From Singulisphaera sp. GP187 (lineage in GTDB: Bacteria > Planctomycetota > Phycisphaerae > Phycisphaerales > SM1A02), in assembly GCA_945871915.1 (NCBI GenBank), contig CAMBXO010000003.1, forward strand, positions 159,794-223,793: DNA of 64,000 bases, written 5' to 3'. The position numbers were made by a program, and so were the translations under genes. Of the stretch, positions 19,363-24,565 are shown piece after piece (the first letter of the stretch is position 1; each line of letters opens with the position of its first letter). The notes beneath the pieces were generated by a model, which saw only the letters and a list, made by a program, of their open reading frames with translations, was not told the DNA's origin and did no database searches.

Positions 19363-21120
19363 ATGGTCAACCACAATCTCATTGAGCAACTCGCTCTCGA
19401 CTCAAACGCTGCCGACCTCTTGCTCCAGGAAGCCTTCGGCGACACCTCAGACATTGCAACAATTCTTGGCGACGAACTCGCCGCCGTCGGCGCTGGCAAC
19501 ATCGTTAAAGGCCGCGTTGTCGGCATTAGCGGTGACTTTGTCATCGTGGACATTCGCGGAAAGAGCGAAGGTCAAGTTGAAAAATCCGAATTCGACGAGG
19601 CAGGCGGCGTCGCCATTGGCGATGAAGTCGAAGTCCTTGTTGAAGAAACCGACGCCGAGGATGGCGGGATCACGCTCAGCAAGCGCAAGGCCGATCGAAT
19701 CCGCGGCTGGGAACAATTGCTGCTCACTCGCAAGGAAGGCGATGTGGTGGAAGGCAAAGCACTTCGCAAGATCAAGGGCGGACTGCTGGTGGACATCGGC
19801 GTTCCGGTTTTCCTTCCAGCCAGCCAAGTGGATGTGCGTCGCCCCGGCGATATCGGTGATTTCATTGGAAAGAATGTCCGCGCTGTCATTCTGAAAATTG
19901 ACGAAGAGCGTCGCAACATCGTCATCAGCCGTCGCAAGTTGATCGAAGAAGAGCGCGAAGGTGCCAAGCGTCGCTTGATGGACAATGTGAAAGAGGGCGA
20001 TGTTGTTCGCGGAACCGTCACCAACATTGCGGAGTTCGGTGCTTTCATCGACCTCGGCGGTTTGGACGGATTGCTGCACATCACCGACATGAGTTGGGGT
20101 CGCGTGAATCATCCAAGCGAAATCGTGCGCATCGGCGACGAGATCGAAGTCAAAATTCTGAACATCGACCGAGATCGCGAAAAGATCGCGCTGGGCCTGA
20201 AGCAGAAAGAAGCCAGTCCATGGGAGGAGATCGAGCAGAAGTATCCGGTCAACGCCCGCGTGAAGGGATCTGTGGTCAGCCTGATGAGTTACGGCGCGTT
20301 TGTTCGACTTGAGGATGGCATCGAGGGCTTGGTGCATGTCAGCGAAATGAGTTGGACTCGCCGCATCAATCACCCAAGCGAACTTGTCGCAGTCGGTGCC
20401 GAACTGGATGTCGTGATCTTGGAGATCAACAAAGACAAACTCGAAATCTCGCTCGGTATGAAGCAGACCGAAGTGAATCCGTGGGAATTGGTCGCTGAGA
20501 AATATCCCCCCGGCACCATTATTGAAGGCAAGGTTCGCAACTTGGCCAACTACGGCGCGTTCATTGAGATCGAGCCTGGCATCGACGGGTTGCTGCATGT
20601 CAGTGACATCAGCTGGACCAAGAAGGTGGCACACCCAAATGAGGCCTTCAAGAAGGGCGACTCACTTCGATGCGTGGTGCTTGATGTGGATCGCGAGAAG
20701 CAGCGCGTGGGTCTTGGCACCAAGCAACTCAGCGAGGATCCGTGGGTGGAAGCCATCCCCGGTGCATATCGACCCGGCATGATCGTGAAGGGTCATATCA
20801 CCAAGATCACCAACTTCGGCGTGTTTGTGGAATTGGAAGACGGCCTCGAAGGCTTGCTGCACATCAGCGAACTTTCCGACCAGAAGGTGGAAAATCCGCT
20901 CGATGTTGTGAAGCCAGGCCAAGAAGTCGATGTGAAGATTCTTCGCGTGGACACGGCCGATCGCAAGATTGGTCTCAGCCTCAAGCGAGCCCAATGGGGC
21001 GCGGGAATGGCTGGCATGGATCAGGATCTTCCAGCCGACGATTCACTCCGTGGCAAGGGTCCAACTCGAGGCGGCATGGACGACCATGGCGCATTGGGTA
21101 CGGACAAGATCAAGTTCTGA
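19363..21120 (+). CDS. rpsA: 30S ribosomal protein S1
   Basis: 585 aa with multiple S1 repeats (GAFIDLGGLDGLLHITDMSW, GAFVRLEDGIEGLVHVSEMSW, GVFVELEDGLEGLLHISELS). Confidence 0.95.
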   Translation: MVNHNLIEQLALDSNAADLLLQEAFGDTSDIATILGDELAAVGAGNIVKGRVVGISGDFVIVDIRGKSEGQVEKSEFDEAGGVAIGDEVEVLVEETDAEDGGITLSKRKADRIRGWEQLLLTRKEGDVVEGKALRKIKGGLLVDIGVPVFLPASQVDVRRPGDIGDFIGKNVRAVILKIDEERRNIVISRRKLIEEEREGAKRRLMDNVKEGDVVRGTVTNIAEFGAFIDLGGLDGLLHITDMSWGRVNHPSEIVRIGDEIEVKILNIDRDREKIALGLKQKEASPWEEIEQKYPVNARVKGSVVSLMSYGAFVRLEDGIEGLVHVSEMSWTRRINHPSELVAVGAELDVVILEINKDKLEISLGMKQTEVNPWELVAEKYPPGTIIEGKVRNLANYGAFIEIEPGIDGLLHVSDISWTKKVAHPNEAFKKGDSLRCVVLDVDREKQRVGLGTKQLSEDPWVEAIPGAYRPGMIVKGHITKITNFGVFVELEDGLEGLLHISELSDQKVENPLDVVKPGQEVDVKILRVDTADRKIGLSLKRAQWGAGMAGMDQDLPADDSLRGKGPTRGGMDDHGALGTDKIKF

Positions 21121-21135
21121 TTTCGCAACTCCATT

Positions 21136-21228
21136 TACTCAACTCACCTAACACAACGACCTCGGCACAATGCCGAGGTCGTTTCATTTTCCCCGTTGCC
21201 GCTAGGGAGCTGAGGGAACACAGCACCC
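21136..21228. repeat. 93-bp direct repeat, left copy (contains rpsA terminator hairpin)
   Basis: 91/93 identical to 22486-22578; contains acgacctcggcacaatgccgaggtcgtttcatttt. Confidence 0.95.
21156..21190 (+). terminator. rpsA terminator
   Basis: ACGACCTCGGCA-caa-TGCCGAGGTCGT + ttcatttt. Confidence 0.85.
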
Positions 21229-21561
21229 AGCCGCCTCCGCACTGTTCATGAAAGACACGCCGTGATTCACACTTCTGAATTACCCCGAACTGAAACGACG
21301 ATTGTTTGTGGCGACTTATTTGGTGAAAGGAGTGGAATTGTGGAATACAACGCCAGTCGAATCCACGTAGACCCGATTTCCGCACAAACATGGGCGACTT
21401 GTCGGCGGGCAAGGGGCGCAGGTTCCCGATCGCGACACACTTCGTAATTGTGGTTGGCCTCGGCATCAATTGCGCAAACCCCCGCCCAAGCGTTTTCCCG
21501 TGTCCGAACACCGACCTGTCACGAGTGAATGAATTTTCATGGCCCACGCTTTGACAGCGTG

Positions 21562-22455
21562 CTACTTCCGAATGGCAACGACAAGAATCGCCATGACAAG
21601 GGACACAATAACAAGGTACAACACCAATCGAACGCTACAGTAGGACGTTAGCCCACCGCATTGCGTTGACTCGCTTCGAACGCGAAGGCCAGGGAGCGTC
21701 GCATCTTGCCCGAAAGTTGCCACAATGACGATTGGAATGGGCGAGTAACCGCCAGTTAAGACTCTGTAAATACTGGCCTGATACTTGCAGCCTGAATCAA
21801 GTTCCGCTGCCAAGTCGGCGGCATGGGTTACACCTTGACCATCGCACTCGGGGACATAACCAATTTCCACCATTCCCTCAGTGATGTAGAGGCGACATGC
21901 GTTGCGGCTGTGTTGATTTTTCGGCTCACGAATGACGATCACTTCCCGACCCACTTCTGCGTGAGCGAGAATCCGCTCTGGCCTATCTTCAAATCGTGTC
22001 CCAGCAACCATAAAGTTGTAGTGACCGCGTTTCTTGTTGAGGATCCGCTCGGCCCTCAACTTCTCATTCGCTTGCTCCTGCCGCTCTTGCCCAGCAGCCT
22101 CTTCAACCTCTGCGATTTCCTTGTTCCTCTCGCGGATCTCTAAGCGGTTTCCCTTTGCAATCGAAGTCAAATCACTTGGAAGGACTCGCTCTACTGCTTT
22201 GTAAAGGGTCTCTTGTTCCTCTCGAGTCACCTTTCCATCGGCGATGATGGCCTCTACCGTATCGGCGAGGAACGAAATCGCGGGCAGCGGAGACTCCCTA
22301 TTTCGTTTAATCCACTTCGTAAGTTCAATCACTTCAGGCGCGTCGAACTTTCCGTCCTGCGTAATGGTTTGCAGCAGCTGAATCAACTCTAGACCTTCGG
22401 CAGTCTCGCGTTGCGTTTTGGTCAGTCTGAGGTGCTTCCCCGTCGGCACTTGCAT
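21562..22455 (-). CDS. TerB-like / HIRAN domain protein with C-terminal TM anchor
   Basis: N-terminal LIQLLQTITQDGKFDAPEVIELTKWIKRN..IIADGKVTREEQETLYKAV (TerB-like); FMVAGTRFEDRPERILAHAEVGREVIVIREPKNQHSRNACRLYITEGMVEIGYVPECDG (HIRAN-like); C-terminal LVLYLVIVSLVMAILVVAIRK. Confidence 0.75.
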   Translation of the reverse strand: MQVPTGKHLRLTKTQRETAEGLELIQLLQTITQDGKFDAPEVIELTKWIKRNRESPLPAISFLADTVEAIIADGKVTREEQETLYKAVERVLPSDLTSIAKGNRLEIRERNKEIAEVEEAAGQERQEQANEKLRAERILNKKRGHYNFMVAGTRFEDRPERILAHAEVGREVIVIREPKNQHSRNACRLYITEGMVEIGYVPECDGQGVTHAADLAAELDSGCKYQASIYRVLTGGYSPIPIVIVATFGQDATLPGLRVRSESTQCGGLTSYCSVRLVLYLVIVSLVMAILVVAIRK

Positions 22456-22485
22456 GAAAGGAGTTTACTCGCGTTCGCGCACCCC

Positions 22486-22578
22486 TACTCAACTCACCCA
22501 ATACAACGACCTCGGCACAATGCCGAGGTCGTTTCATTTTCCCCGTTGCCGCTAGGGAGCTGAGGGAACACAGCACCC
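22486..22578. repeat. 93-bp direct repeat, right copy
   Basis: Differs from 21136-21228 only at two positions (cacctaacac vs cacccaatac). Confidence 0.95.
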
Positions 22579-22762
22579 TTGCCAGATTTGCGATTGCACT
22601 TTCAACACAAAGCCATGAAGCCAAGCAGCGCGAAGCCAATGAGGCGGCGCTTGCGGTCTCCAAGTTTGATGAATCGGTGCAGGGAACGCATCGCAAATCT
22701 CGAGTTGCCTTGTCGGAGCCGCCCGATCACAAGACCAAGGCGGCTCCGGCTACGCTCCCACC

Positions 22763-24565
22763 ATGCGCCGAAAATGGCCGGTGTCCACTTTGGCTTGCCT
22801 CTTCCTTGCACATTTTTCATTTGGTGCAAGGCAACCCGCACTGGACCGCCCCACCCTCGACGCGGCTCAGACATGGTTCACTGCGTGCCGATCCTGGCTT
22901 GATTCCAACCCGGAACCGGCGTCAATTCCGGACAAAACCCCTTTGAAATTGGCCGTTCCGGCCGAATTCCAAACCCTGCGTTTTTCAGCCGTTGCAGTCG
23001 TTCTTCGGCTGGATGGGCGGCCCGTGGGAGAGGCATGGAAAGCAGGTCCGGAAACTTCTGCGATCTCTTCCGCATTGCAACTGGCGTTTGCCAACGCTTC
23101 AGTCGATCGACGCGTGGCTTCGCTGCCCAGCGATTTGCTGGCAACGCTCGGTTCTCGGCTCACCATTGAACTGGAACTTGCAGGCGAACCTCAACCATTG
23201 ACCGGGCAACGCCTGGACTTGCTCGCCTCACGGGTGCAACCCGCACTTGAAGCCTTTGCATTTCGAAATGGAGATCGCTGGGTGTTTGCCATGCCAAGCA
23301 TTGTGCAGAGTCGGAATCAATCAAGTGTCCTGAAATATCTTGCGCTGCTCTCGGCGCGCGATATTGGAATCGATTTCACTGGCGCAACCGACTTGCAACT
23401 GCCAGACGGGGCTGCGGCCTATCGAGTTGCGACACGGCGATTCGCACAAGTCGCTCCTTCTGCCAAACCATTTGAATCCATTCGAGGCTCACGGCTTGTC
23501 GATCGAGCGAACATCCATGCCGCCTCTATGACGACCATGGCGACGGATCTTGCACACCATCTTCTGCAACGCTGGCCAACCACCGAATCGCTGGATGCTG
23601 AGGCCGCAAGATCGATTCAAGCCTTGGGTCCGCGCGCGCTCTATCAACCGTCTTCTGGAAGTTGGCCGCAACTGGTATCGAACCCTGCCGATCAAAGCCT
23701 TGCCGCATTGGCTATGGCTGAGGCAAGTTGTGCACCATGGCTCTCGCAAGAAGACCGCACGGCCGCGCGAGCGTTTGCTGTCAGCACGCTTCAGGCCTTG
23801 CAAACGATTGAGCCAGAGGAAATTGATCCTGCGGCCGATGCACAGGCCATCTCCACCATCGTGCTCACAGTTGATGTGCTCGATCGCCAAGACACGTCAT
23901 GGTGTTCCGCCGAACATCGTCTCTGGATTGCGCACCTTCGTGAAGTGCTGATCGCTTTGGCCGAGAAATTGGAGAAACCACAATCCAGTTTGGCGTGCGT
24001 GATCACAGCGGCGCTTGGTCAGAACACTCCACCAAGTCTTCGCAAGGCTGCATGGGATGCCGCTGATCCGGACTGCACGCTTGCGGCAACTCCGTGGATG
24101 CTTCGAAACACAACGCTGGTCGATCCTCAAGCCGTGCGTGCAGCGTGGGTCGCTGCACTTCCGGCACTGTTGGAAACGCAATGGTCCATCGAATCGCCCG
24201 GCCACGAGAGCGCAGACCTTGACGGTGGGTGGGCTCGGGGCTCATCAACCGCAGGCCCAACTGCACTTTCGTCGCGTGTTGCTCTGGCTCTCGCGATGGC
24301 GCTCAAACACGATGGCGCGATTGAAAGTGATCAGCGACCTGAGGGGGTGGAGTCGCTTCGGCGCGCGATGCGCCTTCTTCGGCAACTTCAAGTGGATCAT
24401 GAGGCGAGTTACGCCTTTCGTGATCCTGCCAAGGCGCACGGCGGAATTCGTGCCGCGCCGTGGGATAGCGATGAACACATGACCGCCACCGCCTACACAC
24501 TCTTGGCCGCACTCCATGCTCACGAAGTTTTCGCAGCGGCAGAGGCCGTGGCGAGCCAACCCTAG
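22763..24565 (+). CDS. Secreted hypothetical protein (600 aa)
   Basis: Signal peptide MRRKWPVSTLACLFLAHFSFGARQ; alpha/alpha-barrel-like repeats; TACGCT box 6 nt before ATG. Confidence 0.7.
   Translation: MRRKWPVSTLACLFLAHFSFGARQPALDRPTLDAAQTWFTACRSWLDSNPEPASIPDKTPLKLAVPAEFQTLRFSAVAVVLRLDGRPVGEAWKAGPETSAISSALQLAFANASVDRRVASLPSDLLATLGSRLTIELELAGEPQPLTGQRLDLLASRVQPALEAFAFRNGDRWVFAMPSIVQSRNQSSVLKYLALLSARDIGIDFTGATDLQLPDGAAAYRVATRRFAQVAPSAKPFESIRGSRLVDRANIHAASMTTMATDLAHHLLQRWPTTESLDAEAARSIQALGPRALYQPSSGSWPQLVSNPADQSLAALAMAEASCAPWLSQEDRTAARAFAVSTLQALQTIEPEEIDPAADAQAISTIVLTVDVLDRQDTSWCSAEHRLWIAHLREVLIALAEKLEKPQSSLACVITAALGQNTPPSLRKAAWDAADPDCTLAATPWMLRNTTLVDPQAVRAAWVAALPALLETQWSIESPGHESADLDGGWARGSSTAGPTALSSRVALALAMALKHDGAIESDQRPEGVESLRRAMRLLRQLQVDHEASYAFRDPAKAHGGIRAAPWDSDEHMTATAYTLLAALHAHEVFAAAEAVASQP

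What the first reader, a model, noticed from the sequence alone, without database searches (positions are those of the whole stretch)
21136..22578. One-gene insert (TerB-like/HIRAN/TM protein) bracketed by 93-bp direct repeats of the rpsA terminator
Seen: 21136-21228 and 22486-22578 are 91/93 identical in direct orientation. Both carry the rpsA terminator hairpin plus about 40 bp of downstream sequence. Between them lies about 1.26 kb with a single convincing gene on the opposite strand. Such long near-identical flanks imply a recent event: site-specific or homologous insertion downstream of rpsA, or excisable cargo. No integrase or transposase is present, so this is either a non-autonomous cargo module or a tandem duplication product. 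Recombination between the repeats would cleanly excise the gene and restore a normal rpsA 3' end.
Basis: partly seen in the sequence, partly recalled or inferred. Interest (0 to 1): 0.68.

Follow-up and report, generated by a model that had tools for sequence, protein, structure and literature searches.

The report
Gene inserted between duplicated rpsA terminators
A foreign single gene sits just after the ribosomal gene rpsA between two near-identical copies of rpsA's own stop signal, and a related species carries a different foreign gene in the same spot with its own stop signal duplicated in the same way, so this looks like a recurring landing site and not a one-off.

Summary
21136-21228 and 22486-22578 match at 91/93, and these are the only two copies in the genome. 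Each holds the rpsA terminator hairpin plus a second hairpin. Between them lie 1257 bp with one gene (297 aa; HIRAN domain, C-terminal hydrophobic helix; TerB not confirmed by Pfam). Nine same-genus genomes have the empty site: rpsA, one terminator, next gene. No homologue spanning most of the cargo protein was found in any collection searched. Only two tyrosine recombinases occur in the genome, presumably XerC and XerD.

The new result is recurrence. A second species (G010) carries an unrelated gene (GYF_2-like plus membrane segment, opposite strand) at the same place, flanked by a 62-bp direct repeat (60/62) of its own rpsA terminator. Its cargo is 61% GC in a 70% GC genome. G010's sister G006 is empty, and about 60 other family loci lack the pattern. 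The rpsA terminator was therefore probably hit twice independently.

The integration route is inferred, not shown. I favour integrase-less capture of foreign DNA at a rearrangement-prone terminator, with the terminator duplicated in the event. It works like a Neisseria minimal mobile element, with the added terminator duplication.

The parts
19363..21120 (+). rpsA, 30S ribosomal protein S1 (585 aa, six S1 domains); the upstream neighbour of the landing site
   Evidence: Pfam S1 E 1e-100, six stretches; full-length orthologues 83-91% identical in the genus
21136..21228 (+). T1, left copy of the 93-bp repeat. Contains the rpsA terminator hairpin (21155-21183) and a second imperfect hairpin (21205-21228)
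   Evidence: the homologous terminator follows rpsA in same-genus genomes
21229..22485 (.). The insert: 1257 bp, single copy, absent from relatives, GC 53.2% against 56.8% +/- 1.8 for the genome
21562..22455 (-). Cargo gene, 297 aa: helical N-terminus, HIRAN domain (residues 144-230), C-terminal hydrophobic helix
   Evidence: Pfam PF08797 27.1 bits over the 24.7 cut-off; phrog_3989 and phrog_18569; PADLOC candidate PDC-M03B E 4e-6; model
21229..21561 (.). Non-coding left third of the insert; no recognisable gene remnant
   Evidence: no Pfam match for its main frames; no convincing DNA match in 150 relatives
22486..22578 (+). T2, right copy of the 93-bp repeat, with the same two hairpins (22505-22533, 22555-22578)
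22602..22691 (-). Conserved small ORF (29 aa, MRSLHRFIKLGDRKRRLIGFALLGFMALC) native to the site; marks the right-hand native flank
   Evidence: same position and C-terminal motif in 44 of 80 family loci; control
22763..24565 (+). Downstream native gene (600 aa, no Pfam or NCBIfam match), syntenic after rpsA across the family

Best explanation
A foreign DNA segment with one complete gene was inserted at the rpsA transcription terminator, and the terminator region was duplicated in or around that event, so the cargo is now bracketed by T1 and T2. A different segment entered the same site, with the same kind of terminator duplication, in a second species of the genus. The site tolerates cargo because each flank keeps a working terminator: T1 still ends rpsA, and T2 separates the cargo from the native downstream small ORF and gene. 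No integrase is involved: foreign DNA was captured by break repair or template switching at a hairpin-rich, rearrangement-prone spot, or by short-homology recombination. Cargo can afterwards be lost by recombination between the repeats, or pass within a species by ordinary recombination in the flanking genes. Shown: insertion, empty sites, duplication, two species with unrelated cargo, atypical cargo GC in G010. Inferred: the molecular route, terminator activity, excision, spread.
For: Empty site in nine same-genus genomes. Insert single-copy in the genome, without relatives in 101 close genomes and 392 of the phylum beyond two weak partial hits, and without a near-full-length relative in phages, plasmids or other collections. 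The second case, G010, has a 62-bp repeat 60/62 identical, extending to 73 nt at 92%, 790 bp apart, around a 211-aa GYF_2-like gene on the other strand, with only two full copies of that terminator in G010. Its insert GC is 61.3% against 69.9% +/- 2.3, lowest 0.4% of windows. An rpsA tree puts G010 with empty G006 (support 95/96) and G000 outside both, favouring two events. In about 60 other family loci the rpsA-to-next-gene gap is 251-982 bp (median 372) and no gene-bracketing terminator repeat exists. Two tyrosine recombinases only. Tandem duplications directly after rpsA in three other genomes show that the spot rearranges.
Against: No junction, read or population data show an intermediate. 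A 60-95 bp direct repeat containing the 3' end of a target gene is also what a phage-type integrase leaves, and an integrase could have acted in trans and been lost. A one-time ancestral terminator duplication with cargo replacement, loss in G006 and gene conversion is not formally excluded. Own-insert composition is only mildly atypical (lowest 3% GC, top 4% tetranucleotide distance). Both genomes appear to be metagenome-type draft assemblies.
Confidence: 0.55

Rival explanations
1. Site-specific integration. The rpsA terminator is an attB; each cargo is a small element or satellite whose attP carries a host-derived copy of the terminator, integrated by a recombinase supplied in trans (phage, plasmid, or the host XerC/XerD).
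For: Long identity blocks covering the 3' end of the target, same target in two species, unrelated cargo, empty sites in relatives. The imperfect part of the repeat is on one side only, as expected if T2's left part came with the element.
Against: No integrase in either insert and only two tyrosine recombinases in the genome (serine recombinases not searched). The repeat boundaries differ between the two species: the right end is beyond the second hairpin in the window, in its loop in G010. One-gene 0.7-1.3 kb elements with no mobility gene would be unusual. No matching attP in phages or plasmids.
Confidence: 0.22
2. Campbell-type single crossover: a non-replicating circle carrying the cargo plus a copy of the terminator region recombined by homology into the chromosomal terminator.
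For: Gives exactly T1-cargo-T2 with a direct repeat; 62-93 bp is within reach of homologous recombination (general knowledge).
Against: Needs a donor that already carried a conspecific terminator next to a foreign gene; no such donor was found.
Confidence: 0.12
3. One ancestral duplication of the terminator in the subclade, followed by cargo turnover (minimal-mobile-element style), loss in G006, and gene conversion keeping T1 and T2 alike within each species.
For: Both cases fall in the same subclade. G003 and G012 contigs end in or just after the terminator, which is unresolved.
Against: G010's sister G006 has one terminator. T1 and T2 are far more alike within each species than between species, so continual gene conversion would be needed.
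Confidence: 0.1
4. Assembly artefact.
For: Both loci come from contigs of genomes that look metagenome-derived; a 76-bp perfect shared stretch can confuse short-k assemblers.
Against: Two species, each with its own terminator sequence and with internal differences between copies; the own contig is 224 kb; cargo joins the terminator on both sides in each.
Confidence: 0.05

Closest known systems
Minimal mobile elements (MME) of Neisseria (Saunders and Snyder 2002, as described in PMC3898611)
   Same: A slot between two conserved genes that holds different whole-gene cassettes in different genomes, with no mobility gene of its own.
   Different: MMEs as described there move only by homologous recombination in the conserved flanks and no flanking duplication is part of the definition. 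Here the cargo is bracketed by a 62-93 bp duplication of the upstream gene's terminator. Seen between species, not shown between strains.
Integrase-type islands at the 3' end of a gene (tRNA-type att sites)
   Same: Direct repeats that include the 3' end of the target locus; empty sites in relatives; target function preserved.
   Different: Target is a terminator after rpsA; no integrase; 0.7-1.3 kb with one gene.
Integron gene cassettes (gene plus attC hairpin)
   Same: One gene plus one hairpin-bearing repeat per unit (analogy only, own knowledge).
   Different: The hairpin is the native rpsA terminator found once in relatives; no IntI-like integrase beyond the two tyrosine recombinases; no array.
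Group IIC introns, known to insert at terminators (own knowledge; one search lists papers)
   Same: Preference for terminator hairpins.
   Different: No reverse transcriptase or intron RNA; no Rfam intron match; introns do not leave a 60-95 bp direct repeat.

Membership tests
Minimal mobile element | Region between two conserved genes | tested here: met
   rpsA and the 600-aa gene are adjacent in 61 loci of the family with a median gap of 372 bp
Minimal mobile element | Different whole-gene cassettes in different strains of a species | tested here: inconclusive
   Different cassettes in two species of one genus; no second strain of either species was available
Minimal mobile element | Incorporated solely by homologous recombination in the flanks | not testable with these tools
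   Needs strain-level data; the duplicated terminator is not explained by a plain double crossover
Integrase-dependent genomic island | Direct repeats including the target's 3' end | tested here: met
Integrase-dependent genomic island | Encodes, or is served by, an integrase | tested here: not met
   None in the insert; two tyrosine recombinases in the genome. Serine recombinases and integrases of lost helper elements were not tested
Integron cassette | Integron integrase nearby or in the genome | tested here: inconclusive
   Two PF00589 proteins of 347 and 354 aa, the number expected for XerC and XerD; not phylogenetically typed
Integron cassette | attC site specific to the cassette and not native to the chromosome | tested here: not met
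   The hairpin is the native rpsA terminator of the genus
Transposon / IS | Transposase, terminal inverted repeats, short target duplication | tested here: not met
   No transposase ORF; direct, not inverted, 93-bp repeats
HIRAN-domain protein (cargo) | Pfam PF08797 above the gathering score | tested here: met
   27.1 against 24.7 bits
TerB-like protein (cargo) | Match to a TerB family model | tested here: not met
   No Pfam hit for residues 1-127 even at E 10; only phrog_3989 of unknown function

The most novel reading that the evidence does not exclude
Small single-gene cassettes in this bacterial lineage move by a so far undescribed mechanism that targets the rpsA terminator and copies it each time, a terminator-based cassette system running without a resident integrase.
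Probability: 0.15. Interest if true: 0.8.

Novelty: new variant of a known kind. Interest (0 to 1): 0.5.

Why it matters
How single genes without relatives or mobility genes enter bacterial chromosomes is an open question. Two species of one genus with different cargo at the same ribosomal-protein terminator, each with its own terminator duplicated, give a defined locus where the entry route can be read off by sequencing more strains. It also suggests that a terminator is a safe landing pad: duplicating it keeps rpsA and the neighbours insulated from the new gene.

Tried and rejected
(1) Tandem duplication: rejected, the insert is single-copy. (2) Dispersed repeat: rejected, two copies only. 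(3) Transposon or IS: no transposase ORF and no terminal inverted repeats; ORF fragments in the non-coding left third gave no Pfam match. (4) Known RNA element or intron: the only Rfam match is a sub-threshold enterobacterial sRNA fit to the hairpin (34.3 bits against 60), taken as chance. (5) Donor search for cargo or repeat: protein and DNA searches of plasmids, phages, viral and genome contigs gave no near-full-length relative, only HIRAN-domain hits in phages covering at most 32% of the query. (6) Other duplicated-terminator inserts in the same genome: none in about 864 kb, nor in about 205 kb of G010 or about 345 kb of G014. The rest of the genome was not scanned for repeats. (7) Structure prediction of the cargo: single sequence, mean pLDDT 48, so no fold search was made. 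(8) G003 and G012 as possible third and fourth cases: contigs end at the site, unresolved. (9) The tree of the 600-aa gene was spoilt by a wrong-frame G003 row and was not used; only the rpsA tree in the same call was.

Full report
Observation. They are the only long direct repeat in the window and have exactly two copies in the 2.24-Mb genome. Each folds into the same two hairpins: a 13-bp perfect stem followed by a T-rich stretch, scored as a terminator, and about 20 nt further on a weaker stem with GGGAAC in the loop. Both fold far better than shuffled sequence (z about -6). The differences between the copies, at positions 14 and 17, lie upstream of the first hairpin.

Empty site. In nine same-genus genomes (G001, G004, G005, G006, G007, G009, G013, G014, G015) rpsA is followed by one terminator and then, about 300 bp after rpsA, by the same 600-aa gene. 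The native small ORF on the minus strand lies between terminator and gene. In the window the left flank (rpsA stop codon, terminator) and the right flank (small ORF, 600-aa gene) are both native, so the additional DNA is one repeat plus 1257 bp. At repeat position 17 the closest relative, G012, shares the base of T1 (AACAC), a weak hint that T1 is nearer the ancestral state.

Cargo. One gene, 297 aa, minus strand. HIRAN is above the Pfam cut-off. The N-terminal part matches only an unnamed phage family (phrog_3989, E 1e-7), and TerB was not found. PADLOC's candidate family PDC-M03B matches the HIRAN stretch (E 4e-6); this is a hint of a role in phage conflict, no more. I found no homologue over most of its length in 101 close genomes, 392 genomes of the phylum, plasmids, phages, viral contigs or genome contigs. 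The segment has lower GC than most of the genome (53.2% against 56.8% +/- 1.8).

Recurrence. Fetching the rpsA 3' region of G010 showed a 1077-bp gap between rpsA and the 600-aa gene, where relatives have about 300. It contains a 211-aa gene on the plus strand with a sub-threshold GYF_2 domain (22.9 bits against 25.8) and membrane segments. It is flanked by a direct repeat of G010's own rpsA terminator: 60/62 identical, or 73 nt at 92%, spacing 790, with only two full copies in G010. The insert is 61.3% GC in a genome of 69.9% +/- 2.3, lower than 99.6% of equal-sized windows. The stop codon of this gene lies inside the second terminator copy, where two changes from the native sequence (CTCGG to CTTAG) supply the TAG. 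So in the window the cargo runs towards rpsA and converges on T1, while in G010 it runs away from rpsA and ends in T2. In both, a terminator hairpin is present on each side of the cargo.

Independence. A tree of the rpsA 3' part places G010 with G006 (support 95/96), then G012, then G000. G006 has the empty site. The two cargos are unrelated and on opposite strands, and the repeat copies are much closer to each other within a species than between species. Two separate events is the simplest reading. One ancestral duplication with cargo swapping, loss in G006 and gene conversion remains possible. G003 and G012 are unresolved because their contigs end in or just after the terminator.

Background rate. 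Across 61 loci (G010 included, the window not) where rpsA and the 600-aa gene lie on one contig, the gap is 251-1077 bp, median 372, with G010 the longest; the window's own gap is 1642 bp. None of the others has a terminator repeat around a gene. Three genomes have short tandem duplications directly after rpsA: 90 bp x 2.6 in G474, 45 bp x 2 in G563, about 125 bp x 2 in G597. The spot therefore rearranges, which is why I favour a repair or template-switch route. No other such insert was seen in about 39% of the own genome.

Mechanism. A resident integrase is unlikely: two tyrosine recombinases, matching XerC and XerD in number; serine recombinases were not searched. An integrase in trans is possible and is the chief rival. 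A plain double crossover does not create the repeat. A Campbell insertion needs a donor carrying a conspecific terminator, and none was found. Capture of foreign DNA during repair at the hairpins with local duplication needs no extra component, fits the different repeat ends in the two species and fits the tandem duplications seen elsewhere; I give it 0.55. Duplication of the terminator may also be why such insertions survive, since rpsA and its neighbours keep their boundaries. That last step is inference.

Comparison. The closest concept is the minimal mobile element of Neisseria, a slot between conserved genes with different whole-gene cassettes and no mobility gene (PMC3898611). It works like one between species, but the flanking duplication is not part of that definition and strain-level exchange was not testable, so I do not file it as a member. 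Literature searches for terminator duplication around single-gene inserts, or for insertions downstream of rpsA, found no precedent in the held library, which does not cover most subscription journals.

Noticed in passing
window 22602-22691 (minus strand); also L064, L066, L067, L069-L071, L073, L074, L077 and many family loci: Conserved small ORF of 22-36 aa with one hydrophobic stretch and a C-terminal Ala-(Leu/Met/Ile)-Cys end, antisense between the rpsA terminator and the next gene. Found in 44 of 80 loci; a stricter count gave 38 of 77 loci on this strand, 0 on the other strand and 0.05 in shuffled sequence. Probably an overlooked small membrane protein.
   Followed up: partly
L180 354-588 (G474): Directly after rpsA, a 90-bp unit with hairpins is repeated 2.6 times at 97% identity.
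   Followed up: partly
L182 about 430-660 (G597) and L175 423-513 (G563): Further tandem duplications downstream of rpsA; rpsA 3' regions seem rearrangement-prone in this family.
   Followed up: no
L077 1-60 (G003) and L065 5600-5653 (G012): Contigs of two more species end in or just after the rpsA terminator, as happens at unresolved repeats; possible further inserts.
   Followed up: partly
L073 3995-4630 (G010): The G010 cargo gene's stop codon lies inside the second terminator hairpin, whose left arm is extended to match the right arm over 19 nt (AAGCAAAGCGACC...GGTCGCTTTGCTT).
   Followed up: partly
window 22763-24565: 600-aa protein next to rpsA, syntenic across the family, without a Pfam or NCBIfam match and poorly conserved (36-51% within the genus, against 83-91% for rpsA).
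   Followed up: no
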